Shown one piece after another: positions 6,629-11,704 of a DNA stretch of 13,732 nt; position 1 is the stretch's first letter, and every line of letters begins with the position of its first letter. The translations under genes and the position numbers were made by a program. The stretch comes from Promethearchaeota archaeon (lineage in GTDB: Archaea; Asgardarchaeota; Lokiarchaeia; Sigynarchaeales; SOKP01), in assembly GCA_016839845.1 (NCBI GenBank), contig JAEOTL010000094.1:1-13732 (forward strand), given 5' to 3'. The notes beneath the pieces are model-generated. The model was not told the DNA's origin, ran no database searches, and was given only the letters and a program-made list of their open reading frames with translations.

Positions 6629-7828
6629 ATGAATAAATCTATGATACAGCCTTTCAATTTTGCTAGTATTCCCCAAATAATTTTCGGTACCGGGAAGCTA
6701 TCTACTCTCTATGAGGTAATTCCAACATTTGGGAGAAATGTACTTATGGTGATTGGGGAAAATTCATTAATAAGATCGGGTCGCTGGGATGAAATTACAT
6801 CGAATTTGGATAGTAAGGAATTAAATTATTCTCAAATCTCGATTTCAGGGGAACCTTCCCCATCACTGATTGATGATTCTACTGAGAAATTTAGAAGCTA
6901 TGATATTGATGTAGTTGTTGGTATTGGTGGAGGAAGCGTTATAGATGCAGGTAAAGCAATTTCAGCGATGCTCCCAAAAAATGATTCCATTGTAAACTAC
7001 CTAGAGGGCATCGGTCATAAAGCTCACAATGGGAGTAAGATTCCATATATAGCAATCCCAACTACTTCTGGTACGGGGAGTGAAGCTACTAAGAACGCTG
7101 TCATTAGTAAGATTGGAAAAAATGGATTTAAAAAATCTCTTCGTCATGATAATTTAATTCCCAATATTGCAATAATCGACCCTAAATTACCGATTACTTG
7201 TCCCCCCTCTATTTCTGGATCCTGTGGAATGGATGCTTTTACCCAATTACTTGAAGCTTATCTATCACCCAGTGGGAGCCCTTTAACGAATTCTCTAGCT
7301 TTAAGCGGAATGAAATATATTAATGAAAGTCTATTGGCTGTATGTTCGGAAGGAGCTTCAAATATAGAAATGCGAGCAGCCATGGCTTATGGTGCTCTTT
7401 TATCTGGAATTTGCTTAGCTAATGCTGGACTTGGTATCGTTCACGGCTTGGCAAGTTCAATTGGGGGTGCTTTCGAAATACCGCATGGAGTTTTGTGCGG
7501 TACGCTCTTAAGTGAAGCCACCAAGATGAATGTTTCTAAGTTGAAGAGACTAGGAACTCAAGGAGATTTGGGATTAGAAAAATACGCAGAAATAGGAGCA
7601 TTATTAGCAGGAGTATATCCCCCATACTTTGACAACAAACTTGATCATTGTAATTTTTTAATCAAAACACTCGAGACTTGGACCCAAAAGTTAAAACTAG
7701 AACGATTGAGCAATTATGGAATTACTGTAGAAAATATTGGTGATCTACTAGAGAAGACGGGGTTAAAAAATAATCCTGTTACTTTAACTAAGGAAGAAAT
7801 TAGAACAATAATAATTAATAGAATTTAA
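6629..7828 (+). CDS. Iron-containing alcohol dehydrogenase family
   Basis: A group III alcohol dehydrogenase, 399 aa, NAD(P)-dependent oxidation/reduction of alcohols and aldehydes. The nucleotide-binding GIGGGSVIDAGKA (98-110) and PTTSGTGSEAT (144-154) motifs are intact. Metal-site positions are Asp202, Gln206 (in MDAFTQLLEAYLS), His272 (VHGLASS) and His286 (IPHGVLCG). The second ligand is usually His; Gln there is seen in a subset of the family and may mean a different metal or specificity. A TTATAATAT box at about 6585-6593 suggests a promoter with a short leader, and no Shine-Dalgarno precedes the ATG. Its stop overlaps the stop of the convergent GTPase gene. Substrate unknown. Confidence 0.92.
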   Translation: MNKSMIQPFNFASIPQIIFGTGKLSTLYEVIPTFGRNVLMVIGENSLIRSGRWDEITSNLDSKELNYSQISISGEPSPSLIDDSTEKFRSYDIDVVVGIGGGSVIDAGKAISAMLPKNDSIVNYLEGIGHKAHNGSKIPYIAIPTTSGTGSEATKNAVISKIGKNGFKKSLRHDNLIPNIAIIDPKLPITCPPSISGSCGMDAFTQLLEAYLSPSGSPLTNSLALSGMKYINESLLAVCSEGASNIEMRAAMAYGALLSGICLANAGLGIVHGLASSIGGAFEIPHGVLCGTLLSEATKMNVSKLKRLGTQGDLGLEKYAEIGALLAGVYPPYFDNKLDHCNFLIKTLETWTQKLKLERLSNYGITVENIGDLLEKTGLKNNPVTLTKEEIRTIIINRI

Positions 7829-8340
7829 GTATAGAAATCCTTAATGATTTCTCTTGCTAATAATTCGAAAGCGAGATGTATATTCTCACCTGTCTTAGAA
7901 GAAATCTTCAAGTATTTAAAAAAACCATATTTCTCTGGAAATGTGGCAGCAAACTCATCGCTCACGGTTATTGATTCTGTCAAGTCCAATTTAGTGCCTA
8001 AAAAGATAATTGGAATCCCCGGATTTTCAGCTCTACAAATATTGACCCATTGATCAATACTCTGTAAACTTGATGGCCGTGTGAGATCAAACAAAAGTAG
8101 TGCCCCTCGTGCTCCTTTTGAATAATCTTTTAATAATGGTCTAAAATGATCTTGACCACCAAAATCCCAGATCTGTAGATTTACTTTTTCCCCATTCACA
8201 TCCACTTCCTGAAGGAAAAAATCAACCCCAAGGGTCATCATAGTATCAACTAAAAATTGTCCCTTTATGTACCTATAAAGAAGTGTAGTTTTTCCTACAC
8301 CACCATCTCCAGCTGTTATCACTTTAAGGAGCTTGGGCAT
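7825..8340 (-). CDS. Ras-superfamily small GTPase (WDFGGQ type)
   Basis: A single-domain GTPase of 171 aa with all five G motifs: P-loop GDGGVGKTT (11-19), switch I Thr36 in MTLGVDF, switch II WDFGGQ (58-63, Gln63 matching Ras Gln61), TKLD (116-119) and SSKTGEN (147-153). Switch I (T-x-GVDFF) is Rab-like, while WDxGGQ is typical of Arf and G-alpha proteins; this mixture is common in Asgard GTPases. There is no C-terminal Cys motif for prenylation and no N-terminal Gly for myristoylation, so membrane attachment, if any, needs a partner. GAGGT (8349-8353) 8 nt before the ATG supports the start. It is a close, nearly gap-free paralogue of the GTPase at 8924-9445. Confidence 0.95.
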   Translation of the reverse strand: MPKLLKVITAGDGGVGKTTLLYRYIKGQFLVDTMMTLGVDFFLQEVDVNGEKVNLQIWDFGGQDHFRPLLKDYSKGARGALLLFDLTRPSSLQSIDQWVNICRAENPGIPIIFLGTKLDLTESITVSDEFAATFPEKYGFFKYLKISSKTGENIHLAFELLAREIIKDFYT

Positions 8341-8483: not shown

Positions 8484-8927
8484 TTAGACTCTCTCAATTG
8501 ACAAAAATTTTTTTTGACGAAGATAAATTGTGTTTAACTCTGACCTTCTTGCTTTTCTACGTAATTCAGAATCATTTGTTGCTAGGAAGACAAGAAAACC
8601 TTTATCTTTGAGTTCCAATGACTTTCTTAGGAGGAATTCATCAGTTAATTCATCCCGATTTTTAACATCTTCTAAAAAATCGATCTCAAAGTTTGGTTGA
8701 TTCTTTTCTAAATACGATAAACCAGAATCTAGTAATCTTGTAAACTTGGTAGCTTTTGGTTCCCGTTTCCTTTTTGATTCCAGCTCATTGAAGATTTGTT
8801 GGTATACAATAAATTTGAGTTTACCTTCCACTTTCATTCTGATTTCTTCTAAATAGTCTACTTTAAACTGAAAAGGAAGAAGAATGAAGTTAGAGTCAAT
8901 TATAACTATCCTGATATTAGATTTCAA
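8484..8927 (-). CDS. PIN-domain nuclease, FCF1/UTP24-like
   Basis: A 147-aa PIN-domain protein. Acidic residues expected of the two-metal nuclease site are visible: Asp11 (IIDSNFILLPFQF), Glu48 (IFNELE), Asp96 (ELTDEFLL) and Asp119 (LATNDSELRRKAR). The ending LATND-x-ELRRKARR...TIYLRQKKFL is characteristic of the archaeal family related to eukaryotic FCF1/UTP24, which cuts pre-rRNA. A ribosomal RNA processing role is inferred, not shown; VapC-like toxins share the fold, but no antitoxin gene is adjacent. The start is a TTG whose TTGA overlaps the TGA stop of the upstream GTPase by 4 nt, implying translational coupling. Confidence 0.8.
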   Translation of the reverse strand: MKSNIRIVIIDSNFILLPFQFKVDYLEEIRMKVEGKLKFIVYQQIFNELESKRKREPKATKFTRLLDSGLSYLEKNQPNFEIDFLEDVKNRDELTDEFLLRKSLELKDKGFLVFLATNDSELRRKARRSELNTIYLRQKKFLSIERV

Positions 8928-9445
8928 TAAGTTTGTCGCTCAAGGATTTTTGTTGTGAGTATTTCGAATGCTCGCCCAACATTTTCACCAGTTAGAGATG
9001 AGATTTTAAGAAAGCCAAGTAAATTGTACTCCTCAAGGAATGATTGAGCATAATCATCATCAACTTGGATCTCATCAACCAAATCCAGTTTTGTACCAAC
9101 AAAAAGAACAGGAAGATTTGGGTCTCCCTTACGGACAATTCCAAGCCACTGTTCAAGGTTTTCCAGGGTCATCATCCTAGTGAGATCGAACATGAGCAAC
9201 GCTCCCTTAGCACCTAATACGTAACTCTCAAGAAGAAAACGAAATCGTTCTTGACCCCCAAAATCCCATAATTGTAAAGTGCATTGCTTAGAATCTATTT
9301 CCGTCTCTTTTAGAAAGAATTCAACACCAATCGTCATTTTTGTATCTGCTGAGAACCTCCCCTCTACATACCTATGGAGGAGTGTTGTTTTTCCTACACC
9401 ACCATCTCCTGCGGTTAAGATCTTAAGTATGAACTTCTTTGGCAT
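8924..9445 (-). CDS. Ras-superfamily small GTPase (WDFGGQ type), paralogue
   Basis: Second small GTPase, 173 aa from the ATG at 9445; a GTG two codons upstream (9451) is less likely because the ATG gives the MPK- start shared with the paralogue. Motifs: GDGGVGKTT (13-21), switch I Thr38 in MTIGVEFF, WDFGGQERFRF (60-70, Gln65), GTKLD (117-121) and SSLTGEN (149-155). The G5 motif has Leu where Ras has Lys/Ala. The C-terminus (ILERQTY) has no lipidation signal. It is the first gene of a two-gene unit with the PIN nuclease. GAP/GEF partners and target membrane are unknown. Confidence 0.95.
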   Translation of the reverse strand: MPKKFILKILTAGDGGVGKTTLLHRYVEGRFSADTKMTIGVEFFLKETEIDSKQCTLQLWDFGGQERFRFLLESYVLGAKGALLMFDLTRMMTLENLEQWLGIVRKGDPNLPVLFVGTKLDLVDEIQVDDDYAQSFLEEYNLLGFLKISSLTGENVGRAFEILTTKILERQTY

Positions 9446-9488
9446 TCTCACGAACTCTTGTTTTGTATTAGACGAAATTTTAAGAAGA

Positions 9489-10660: not shown

Positions 10661-11203
10661 CTATGCAAACCTTTGTTTTTCTTTATGTTCCTTTACAGAG
10701 ATGTCTCTATCACTAAGTCTATTTAGTTTTACTAGAGTGTCTTTTATTAATTTGATTTCAGCACGAGTAGTGACTTTATAATCATTTAATGCATCCAAAA
10801 TCTCTTTTTCACTATATCCTTTATTATAAACATCTTTGAATGCTTGAATGGTTTCTTCATGATAACAAATATATTGTTTGTTTAAAAATACAATAAGCCA
10901 TTTTCTTTTCTCCTGGGATTGCGAGAGCTCGAACATTTTCTCTCTAATTTTGCTTATCGGCTTTTTGAATTTTTTAGCGATTAATTCATCCTCAATTTTA
11001 TAATAGCCTTTCATAAATTTAAATAATTTATTTTTGAGCATGAACTTGGGTACATAAGATAATAAAAATAGAATTAGGGTTATAATCGCCATCCATATGG
11101 CGGCTAAAAGGTTGAAAAAAGCAATAATGACGATAACAATAACAAGAATTAAAAACCAGCTGCGTCCAATTGTTTTTAAAAAAACTATATACTTTTTTGG
11201 CAT
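10661..11203 (-). CDS. Membrane protein of unknown function
   Basis: A 180-aa protein I do not recognise. Two adjacent hydrophobic segments (about residues 15-31 and 33-52) form a membrane hairpin near the N-terminus. They are followed by a basic, helical soluble part (YYKIEDELIAKKFKKPISKIREKMFEL, then EETIQAFKDVYNKGYSEKEILDALNDY). The last ~50 residues are charged and probably coiled or helical. By the positive-inside rule the soluble domain is likely cytoplasmic. There is no catalytic motif. The ATG at 11203 has no clear Shine-Dalgarno. The permuted 5S gene lies upstream on the same strand and its U-tract separates the two. Confidence 0.65.
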   Translation of the reverse strand: MPKKYIVFLKTIGRSWFLILVIVIVIIAFFNLLAAIWMAIITLILFLLSYVPKFMLKNKLFKFMKGYYKIEDELIAKKFKKPISKIREKMFELSQSQEKRKWLIVFLNKQYICYHEETIQAFKDVYNKGYSEKEILDALNDYKVTTRAEIKLIKDTLVKLNRLSDRDISVKEHKEKQRFA

Positions 11204-11281
11204 ATTTTTCCAATTTAGAGCTAATCTTTATGATCTATCCTATATTTGATCACATAAAAAAATTGTTTTTAGCTAGAATTT

Positions 11282-11297
11282 TAAATAAAAGAAAAGG
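11282..11297 (-). terminator. U-rich terminator of the 5S unit
   Basis: Minus-strand CCCTTTTCTTTTATTTAA directly after the 3' arm of the flanking stem (about 10 nt past it). T-rich tracts of this type terminate archaeal small-RNA transcripts. Confidence 0.5.
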
Positions 11298-11307
11298 GTT
11301 AATTGTA

Positions 11308-11322
11308 TATAACCACATAAAA
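11308..11322 (-). repeat. 3' arm of 15-bp processing stem around 5S
   Basis: Perfect reverse complement of 11477-11491; together they would close the 5S precursor as a 15-bp stem (arm on the plus strand: TATAACCACATAAAA). Comparable to the long stems that enclose 16S and 23S in archaeal precursors. Confidence 0.8.
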
Positions 11323-11334
11323 AAGCGTTTCCGG
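11323..11334 (-). promoter_or_regulatory. 3' half of bulge-helix-bulge-like element
   Basis: RNA CCGG-AAA-CGCUU. CCGG (11334-11331) can pair with the CCGG at 11456-11453, AAA (11330-11328) is a 3-nt bulge, and CGCUU (11327-11323) pairs with AAGCG (11461-11457). Standard BHB cleavage after the second bulge base gives a 3' end at 11329. Confidence 0.6.
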
Positions 11335-11450
11335 GTTCGGATGGGTCCGGGTATTTTCCTCGGCCCCCATGACCGTGAGCGAACTCACAGTTTGGTATTT
11401 CCCACAAACTTTCAATTGCAGTACTATTACTCAACGAGACCGAGTTTAAC
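11329..11450 (-). rRNA. rrf: Circularly permuted 5S ribosomal RNA
   Basis: Read on the minus strand this holds all 5S rRNA helices in permuted order. First comes the 3' half: GUUAAACUCGG (helix III/II 3' strands, 11450-11440), helix V UUG-A-GUA (11434-11428), loop E and helix IV CUGCAAUU-GAAA-GUUUGUGG (11421-11402), and helix I 3' strand ACUGUGAG (11391-11384). UUCG (11383-11380) then caps helix I where the natural ends should be. The 5' half follows: CUCACGGU (11379-11372), helix II GGCCGAG (11365-11359), then CCGG-ACCCAUCCGAAC-CCGG (11350-11331; helix III and loop C, almost the archaeal consensus). Pairings: helix I 8 bp, II 7 bp, III CCGG/CCGG with the conserved AA bulge, V 6 bp with a bulged A. 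The unit is 122 nt; without UUCG it is 118, normal for 5S. The ends given are the predicted circle junction. The 5S component binds uL18/uL5 in the large subunit. Confidence 0.9.
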
Positions 11451-11461
11451 TTCCGGCGCTT
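11448..11461 (-). promoter_or_regulatory. 5' half of bulge-helix-bulge-like element
   Basis: RNA AAGCG-CCGG-AA(G)-UU. The outer 5-bp helix and central 4-bp helix pair with the 3' half. The bulge is AA, or AAG if G11450 is left unpaired; GUU can pair with AAC (11337-11335). Cleavage after AA leaves G11450 as the 5' end. CCGGAA is present at both halves, so joining restores CCGGAA-GUUAAAC exactly. Confidence 0.6.
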
Positions 11462-11476
11462 AACTGATTGTTATAA

Positions 11477-11491
11477 TTTTATGTGGTTATA
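11477..11491 (-). repeat. 5' arm of 15-bp processing stem around 5S
   Basis: Perfect inverted partner of 11308-11322. Between this arm and the bulge-helix-bulge-like element lies an unpaired 15-nt stretch (11476-11462) present only on the 5' side. Confidence 0.8.
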
Positions 11492-11507
11492 AAACCACGT
11501 TTTTACC

Positions 11508-11517
11508 ATTTAATAAG
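11508..11517 (-). promoter_or_regulatory. Probable TATA box of the 5S unit
   Basis: Minus-strand CTTATTAAAT, centred about 21 nt before the outer edge of the processing stem. A start 22-27 nt downstream would begin transcription at or near the stem's 5' arm. This is a plausible but ordinary AT-rich match. Confidence 0.35.
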
Positions 11518-11704
11518 TGCGGTTATTTCCTATGTAAATACCTTCTTATTAGGTAATGAGTAAATAGAAATAATATAGGCTAGTAATTAAATTTTTCCTA
11601 TGAAATGGCAAAATTTAAAAGGAGCAAGCTAAGTCATGCGTTAGAATATGATTTTAGGTCTAATGAGAATGATTGTTATATGATTGTTTTCTAAACGGAA
11701 GAGC
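11518..11704. other. Intergenic region without recognised feature
   Basis: Between the 5S promoter and the C25 peptidase stop. No open reading frame of note, tRNA or C/D-box pair is seen. It must contain the peptidase 3' end and any upstream promoter elements of 5S. Confidence 0.4.

What the first reader, a model, noticed from the sequence alone, without database searches (positions are those of the whole stretch)
11329..11450. A circularly permuted 5S rRNA gene in an archaeal (Asgard-like) genome
The minus strand carries the near-consensus 5S segment CCGG-ACCCAUCCGAAC-CCGG, but what should follow it (AAGUUAAACUC..., helices II, V, loop E, IV, and the 3' strand of helix I) lies upstream of it instead. 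All five helices can be formed once the order is rotated, including compensating and wobble pairs in helix I (CUCACGGU/ACUGUGAG) and the conserved AA bulge of helix III. Total length minus the tetraloop is 118 nt, as for an ordinary 5S. Permuted 5S rRNAs are known from some stramenopile (brown-alga-type) mitochondria; I know of no description in archaea, but cannot search. A linear 5S covariance model would score only half the gene, so genomes with this layout would appear to lack 5S.
Basis: partly seen in the sequence, partly recalled or inferred. Interest (0 to 1): 0.96.

Follow-up and report, generated by a model that had tools for sequence, protein, structure and literature searches.

The report
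Inside-out gene for circular 5S rRNA
In this Asgard archaeon the two parts of the 5S ribosomal RNA gene stand in swapped order between complementary flanks, so the cell's tRNA-splicing enzymes would likely join them into a ring; a model of this layout matches 137 of 227 Asgard genomes, which would explain why ordinary searches miss this essential gene there.

Summary
Confirmed at 11329-11450, minus strand. Rfam finds nothing in the window, but a profile of 28 linear Asgard 5S genes gives 15.3 bits in genomic order and 47.0 after rotation at the helix I cap. A diverged copy in a related neighbourhood lies in Lokiarchaeia archaeon ABR03. A covariance model of the permuted order matches 137 of 227 Asgard genomes at E<=1e-10; 132 of these have no RF00001 match over cut-off. 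Helices II-IV covary.

36 of 47 cluster representatives have such a BHB; re-paired flanks give 3.1 on average, 8 at most. Other genomes break the gene at two other sites, again with BHBs, or carry BHB introns in 5S. EndA is found in 226, RtcB in 206 of 227 genomes. Against: computed minimum-energy folds contain the BHB in only 15 of 86. The circle is inferred; no RNA data. It would explain the 5S of Heimdallarchaeum genomes reported as not predictable.

The parts
11329..11450 (-). Permuted 5S rRNA: the 122 nt predicted to be excised and closed into a circle (cut sites 11451|11450 and 11329|11328)
   Evidence: covariance model R1 match 11317-11462, 117.3 bits (the window is one of the 28 rows R1 was built from)
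11372..11391 (-). Helix I as a hairpin: ACUGUGAG (11391-11384), UUCG cap (11383-11380), CUCACGGU (11379-11372)
   Evidence: perfect 8-bp stem; ABR03 has ACUGUAAG-UUCG-CUUACGGU
11437..11444 (-). Helix II, 3' strand CUCGGUCU, pairs with 11366-11359
   Evidence: sequence; helix II covaries in alignment A1
11359..11366 (-). Helix II, 5' strand GGGCCGAG
   Evidence: sequence
11331..11350 (-). Helix III CCGG (11350-11347) / loop C / CCGG (11334-11331)
   Evidence: sequence; helix III cells 100% paired and all four pairs with two-sided changes in A1
11453..11461 (-). 5' half of the predicted BHB: outer strand AAGCG (11461-11457) and central strand CCGG (11456-11453); bulge A11452 A11451 | G11450
   Evidence: central helix 4 bp, outer helix 5 bp; not in the minimum-energy fold
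11323..11334 (-). 3' half of the predicted BHB: central strand CCGG (11334-11331, shared with helix III), bulge A11330 A11329 | A11328, outer strand CGCUU (11327-11323)
   Evidence: outer pairs present in the minimum-energy fold
11481..11490 (-). Terminal stem of the precursor, 5' strand AUAACCACAU
   Evidence: pairs with 11318-11309 in the MFE fold of 11300-11500 (z -4.28)
11309..11318 (-). Terminal stem of the precursor, 3' strand AUGUGGUUAU
   Evidence: largely kept in ABR03
11500..11591 (-). Conserved upstream block with TATA-like CTTATTAAAT (11517-11508), likely promoter
   Evidence: strong intergenic identity to ABR03; function inferred

Best explanation
The minus strand at 11329-11450 carries a 5S rRNA gene whose two parts stand in swapped order, and its flanks form a predicted bulge-helix-bulge that the tRNA-splicing endonuclease likely cuts and the ligase RtcB likely closes, giving a circular 5S rRNA of normal internal sequence. 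Shown: the permuted order, the covarying 5S helices, complementarity of the flanks in BHB register far beyond re-pairing controls, exact restoration of the consensus if both bulges are cut after their second base, the same layout in relatives by model match and in those read, and the presence of EndA and RtcB families in most Asgard genomes. Inferred: transcription from the TATA-like block, folding of the precursor with the two CCGG strands paired, cleavage, ligation, and use of the circle in the large subunit with the usual ends of helix I replaced by a UUCG cap. A BHB intron in a linear 5S at the same site (G014 contig 117) suggests that such introns preceded the permutation.
For: Rotation: 86 permuted genes, median 19.7 bits in genomic order, 46.6 at the best rotation, 79 of 86 gain at least 15 bits, shuffles median 0. 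ABR03 copy beside a C25 peptidase 61% identical to the window's. R1 at E<=1e-10 in 137 of 227 Asgard genomes (counted by hand; 25 of the 137 supplied training rows); RF00001 over cut-off in 64 of 227, 5 of them among the 137. Covariation on A1: 17 of 17 pairs with two-sided changes, 147 two-sided cells against 35.6 in shuffles, score 0.878 against at most 0.221 for slid pairings. BHB with central at least 3 bp and outer at least 4 bp: 36 of 47 representatives and 55 of 86 rows; 300 re-pairings of flanks give mean 3.1, maximum 8 of 47 (mean 5.3, maximum 13 of 86). Central pairs vary: CCGG/CCGG, CGTG/CACG, CAGG/CCTG, CTGG/CCAG, CGGG/CCCG. Two further break points, loop C in 6 loci and loop B in 1 genome, also have a 4-bp central helix and rejoin to 5S consensus; BHB introns in loop C of 17 loci, helix III of 1, and in 1 linear gene. 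EndA 226 of 227, RtcB 206 of 227 over cut-off. Precedent: Thermoproteus permuted SRP RNA, BHB cut by EndA, circular by RNA-seq (passages).
Against: No RNA data. Energy folding does not favour the BHB: the central helix is in the minimum-energy fold of 15 of 86 precursors, reaches probability 0.5 in 13, and forcing it costs a median 2.5 kcal/mol; in the window probability 0.09 and cost 1.8, the upstream CCGG pairing with the 5' strand of helix III instead. ABR03 does form it (probability 0.71). In the window no helix adjoins the 3-nt bulge on the inner side (forced fold), so the motif is a relaxed form. 11 of 47 representatives miss the criterion: L070, L110, L120, L122, L124, L126 with a short outer helix; L081, L088, L109, L139 with none; L052 poor. 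RtcB has no match in 20 of 227 genomes, 13 of which have the permuted model match (G023, G024, G051, G055, G063, G074, G100, G101, G102, G108, G128, G155, G170), among them G051, about 1.4 Mb and nearly all in one contig. 29 of 227 genomes show neither form. PMC12918454 says pure-culture studies find circularisation of 16S and 23S but not 5S in archaea.
Confidence: 0.84

Rival explanations
1. The permuted 5S works as a linear molecule with new ends in helix III, as reported for organellar permuted 5S, and the flanking complementarity only helps trimming.
For: Circular permutation of 5S rRNAs is on record (Valach 2014, cited in a passage of PMC10085705; that paper itself not held). The BHB central helix is rarely the minimum-energy fold.
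Against: The flanks keep the EndA register (4-bp central helix, 3-nt bulges) and covary outside the RNA; ligation would restore the conserved GGAAGUUAA; the other break points do the same.
Confidence: 0.11
2. The ring is opened again at the helix I cap after ligation, so that the ribosome holds an ordinary linear 5S, as happens with permuted tRNAs.
For: Permuted tRNA transcripts are circularised and cleaved back to standard tRNA (passage of PMC10085705).
Against: 63 of 85 helix I stems are closed by exactly 4 nt, UUCG in the window: a short cap with little to remove.
Confidence: 0.12
3. A pseudogene or assembly artefact; the true 5S is linear and elsewhere.
For: The window's own genome is not held; five genomes have both kinds of match.
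Against: Model match in 137 of 227 genomes and covariation; contigs over 1 Mb in G009, G050, G051, G076, G122, G123, G174 carry it while those genomes have no RF00001 match over cut-off.
Confidence: 0.02

Closest known systems
Permuted SRP RNA of Thermoproteus tenax/uzoniensis (Plagens et al. 2015, PMC4731332; abstract and passages seen)
   Same: Permuted gene missed by annotation, leader/trailer BHB, EndA cleavage in vitro, circular product restoring a loop, TATA box upstream.
   Different: Another RNA, two species, experimental proof; here 5S rRNA, much of a phylum, several break points, prediction only.
mtPerm-5S (Rfam RF02547), permuted organellar 5S rRNA (Valach et al. 2014; seen only as a citation in PMC10085705, otherwise recalled)
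   Same: A 5S rRNA gene in permuted order.
   Different: No RF02547 match over cut-off in 8 Asgard genomes and none in the window; organellar and, as recalled, without BHB.
Circular pre-16S/pre-23S rRNA of archaea through BHB, EndA and RtcB (PMC7714728, PMC12918454; passages)
   Same: Same motif and enzymes acting on rRNA.
   Different: Large rRNAs from genes in normal order; 5S is named as not processed this way in pure cultures.
Circularly permuted tRNA genes (review PMC3978253; listing only)
   Same: Swapped halves and a BHB, by its abstract start.
   Different: tRNA; the ring is cut back to standard tRNA (passage of PMC10085705); no such step is evident here.

Membership tests
5S rRNA | Helices and loop consensus once the order is rotated | tested here: met
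   helix V judged by eye only
5S rRNA | Rfam RF00001 match in genomic order | tested here: not met
   no match in window at E<=1; best 18.3 bits in G001, cut-off 38; this follows from the permutation
5S rRNA | Present in the 50S subunit | not testable with these tools
   needs ribosomes
BHB-processed circular RNA | 4-bp central helix, 3-nt bulges on both strands, outer helix, by complementarity | tested here: met
   window central 4 bp, outer 5 bp; 36 of 47 representatives against 3.1 on re-pairing
BHB-processed circular RNA | BHB is the favoured fold of the precursor | tested here: inconclusive
   15 of 86 minimum-energy folds; window probability 0.09, cost of forcing 1.8 kcal/mol
BHB-processed circular RNA | Helix on the inner side too (strict form) | tested here: not met
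   none next to the bulge in type B and C loci nor in the window's forced fold
BHB-processed circular RNA | EndA and RtcB encoded | tested here: met
   in the relative G001: EndA 3.5e-28, RtcB 2.2e-169; the window's own genome is not held
BHB-processed circular RNA | Junction reads or RNase R resistance | not testable with these tools
   no RNA data
mtPerm-5S RF02547 | Match over the gathering score | tested here: not met
   0 of 8 genomes over cut-off, one chance-level match at E 6.6

The most novel reading that the evidence does not exclude
In most Asgard archaea the ribosome carries a covalently closed circular 5S rRNA without 5' or 3' end, made from an inside-out gene by the tRNA-splicing machinery, with the break set at three different sites by BHB introns that had invaded 5S: a ribosomal RNA permuted at gene level in cellular genomes across much of a phylum.
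Probability: 0.72. Interest if true: 0.97.

Novelty: new variant of a known kind. Interest (0 to 1): 0.94.

Why it matters
[quoted passage not shown] The permuted layout would explain it, gives a model with which to annotate these genomes and to mend quality rules that demand a 5S gene (such as in PMC13036324), and predicts a ring-shaped 5S in ribosomes of the archaea closest to eukaryotes. The linear gene with an intron at the same site gives a testable route from intron to permutation.

Tried and rejected
Chance origin: L001 and L002, the other two hits of the pattern scan, have no Rfam match and no 5S around them, and were rejected. Contaminant linear 5S: the RF00001 hits of G111 (L007), G042 (L009) and G134 (L147) look bacterial by eye (recalled motifs); L007 and L009 were left out of the linear profile. 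The RF00001 hit of G031 (contig 90, 77-196) overlaps its permuted gene (contig 90, 1-139) and is no separate linear gene. A strict regex for type A missed most loci and was replaced by anchors and a covariance model. A loop-C intron count in the wrong register was redone. The sigma-70 scan says nothing for an archaeon. RF00001 scoring of rotated letters was not possible; an HMM was used.

Rows dropped: 13 of 99 rows (type B: L050, L051, L069, L130, L131, L132; with inserts: L135, L137, L140; unclassified: L143; type C: L067; cut by contig ends: L113, L144). Alignment A1 holds 28 chosen rows (the window and 27 rows from 26 loci of 25 genomes). The search was given 98 of the sources then held.

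Full report
Observation. The minus strand reads ...AAGCG CCGG AA|GUUAAACUCGGUCUCG...ACUGUGAG-UUCG-CUCACGGU...ACCCGGACCCAUCCGAACCCGGAA|A CGCUU.... It lies between a 180-aa ORF without Pfam match and a C25 peptidase. Rfam finds nothing in the window at E<=1.

It is a 5S rRNA. A profile was built from 28 conventional 5S genes of other Asgard genomes (30 taken, L007 and L009 left out as probable contaminants). Every rotation of the segment was scored: the window rises from 15.3 to 47.0 bits, the best cut lying in the UUCG cap of helix I; over 86 permuted genes the median rises from 19.7 to 46.6 bits, 79 of 86 gain at least 15 bits, and shuffled letters score 0 at the median. Helix I is a perfect stem of at least 6 bp in 85 of 86 genes, with 47 distinct stems and a 4-nt loop in 63 (L072 fails). 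Helices II, III and IV covary on 28 chosen rows: 95.4% of cells paired (shuffles 65.1%), 147 two-sided changes (shuffles 35.6), covariation score 0.878 (slid pairings at most 0.221). Helix V was paired by eye only. In ABR03, 5 of 7 helix II pairs are kept by eye in A1. Circular folding of the window segment gives helices I, II and III; over six segments z ranged from -1.15 (L003) to -3.82 (L047).

Spread. A strict pattern scan of 84,980 GTDB species gave 3 hits; one, Lokiarchaeia archaeon ABR03, is a real permuted gene. It lies near a C25 peptidase 61% identical to the window's, with one extra ORF between, and its 5' flank is strongly conserved. The scan is too strict to say anything about other phyla. 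In the Asgard phylum (227 genomes held), RF00001 passes its cut-off in 64, and R1, the permuted model, matches at E<=1e-10 in 137 (counted by hand; 25 of them supplied the training rows). Five have both: G031, whose RF00001 hit overlaps its permuted gene; G042, G111 and G134, whose linear hits lie on other contigs and look bacterial by eye; and G014, below. G022 (gene cut by a contig end) and G085 (type C) match more weakly; 29 genomes have neither. Genomes with linear genes only reach 1.2e-7 at best with R1 (G216). I read 99 matches from 98 sources: 86 type A, 3 type A with inserts, 2 cut by contig ends, 6 type B, 1 type C, 1 unclassified (L143).

How it likely works. CCGG is self-complementary, so the copy upstream of the gene (11456-11453) can pair with the 3' strand of helix III (11334-11331). 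With outer pairs AAGCG/CGCUU and bulges AA|G and AA|A this is a bulge-helix-bulge, the substrate of the archaeal tRNA-splicing endonuclease (motif as in passages of PMC7714728 and PMC4731332; the cut after the second bulge base is recalled). Cutting both bulges and closing the inner piece gives CCGGAA|GUUAAAC, as in linear Asgard 5S (CCGGAAGUUAAG and the like). In relatives the letters differ but the complementarity stays: CGUG/CACG in 11 rows, 10 of them with outer helices of 8-16 bp, and CAGG/CCUG, CUGG/CCAG, CGGG/CCCG. With homologous cut sites (12 registers allowed, the same for controls), central at least 3 bp and outer at least 4 bp occur in 55 of 86 rows and 36 of 47 representatives at about 80% identity; 300 random re-pairings of 5' and 3' flanks give 3.1 on average and 8 at most for the 47. 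The failures are listed. A terminal stem AUAACCACAU/AUGUGGUUAU encloses the whole, and a TATA-like box ends 17 nt before it in a conserved block.

Against it, energy folding rarely chooses the BHB: 15 of 86 minimum-energy folds have at least 3 of the 4 central pairs, 13 reach probability 0.5, and forcing the helix costs a median 2.5 kcal/mol (53 of 86 cost 3 or less). In the window the outer pairs form, but the upstream CCGG pairs with the 5' strand of helix III, and the BHB has probability 0.09 and costs 1.8 kcal/mol; ABR03 folds into it at probability 0.71. The same 3' strand must serve helix III in the mature RNA, so competition is expected; proteins could decide it. This is the weakest point short of RNA data.

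Other break points and introns (all). Six loci (L050, L051, L069, L130, L131, L132) start in loop C: CUGG[AA|C]...CCGG[UC|A], rejoining to CCCGGUC|CCAUCCGAAC in five and CCCAGAA|ACAUUCCGAA in L069. One genome (G085; L067 and L151) breaks in loop B: CCGA[AA|A]...UCGG[AA|A], rejoining to CAUCGGAA|ACACCCG. Seventeen permuted genes carry a short BHB intron in loop C (central 4 of 4 bp in each; rejoining CAUCYGAA|CCCRG), one (G160) in helix III, one (L159) in helix IV where the join leaves a base or two extra. These were found by patterns written after seeing examples, so their number is not a test; the 4-bp centres and restored consensus are. A linear 5S on a G014 contig with archaeal-type RNA polymerase genes and a tRNA-Thr has a BHB intron exactly at the type A site: CACG[GA|A]...CGUG[AA|A]GUUAAAC. 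This suggests that introns came first, as Plagens et al. proposed for SRP RNA; the order is inference, and G014 may be a mixed bin.

Machinery. PF01974 (EndA) passes its cut-off in 226 of 227 genomes and PF01139 (RtcB) in 206 of 227. Of the 20 without any RtcB match, 13 have the permuted model match, among them G051, nearly all in one contig; there another ligase, a diverged RtcB or a missing piece would be needed.

Literature. Searches for 5S with permuted, circular, Asgard, BHB, Odinarchaeum, Heimdallarchae and related terms listed no paper whose title, abstract start or passages seen describe a permuted or circular 5S gene in archaea; only CC0/CC BY/CC BY-SA PMC papers are held, no preprints. 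Seen as passages: PMC12918454, PMC7758197, PMC8997704, PMC8339473, PMC12558985, PMC10085705, PMC7714728, PMC9723677, PMC8813620, PMC8481954, PMC13036324, PMC4731332 (the last also its abstract); no paper was read whole. PMC12558985 reports circular reads from 5S of Halobacterium, perhaps a part of degradation. PMC9723677 says a Borrarchaeum and a Jordarchaeum MAG have 5S genes, so some Asgards have detectable ones, as found here.

Verdict. The gene order is shown; the BHB is strongly supported by comparison and weakly by energy; the circle is predicted. A new variant of two known kinds (permuted 5S; BHB-circularised permuted RNA), not seen together in what I could search.

Noticed in passing
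window 7825-8340 and 8924-9451, minus: Two small Ras-family GTPases (PF00071), fitting an Asgard genome.
   Followed up: partly
L064 (G055 contig 510), L150 (G031 contig 90): G055 has two permuted 5S genes in tandem, each with its own long outer BHB helix (12 and 14 bp); G031 has four model matches on four contigs.
   Followed up: partly
L042, L043 (G009): Two permuted 5S copies in one 3.33-Mb contig; L043 has an outer helix of 5 bp next to the BHB, L042 none; this group has a hairpin inserted upstream.
   Followed up: partly
L126, L127, L154: Long extra hairpins in the helix I cap of permuted 5S, perhaps further introns.
   Followed up: no
L049, L133: Insert of about 28 nt in helix IV/loop D of permuted 5S, near-identical in two genomes.
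   Followed up: no
L169 (G212 contig 15): Linear 5S with an insert of about 30 nt after GGAAGUUAA, perhaps an intron.
   Followed up: no
window 11170-11463, plus: 97-aa ORF on the opposite strand of the 5S gene; judged spurious by eye.
   Followed up: no
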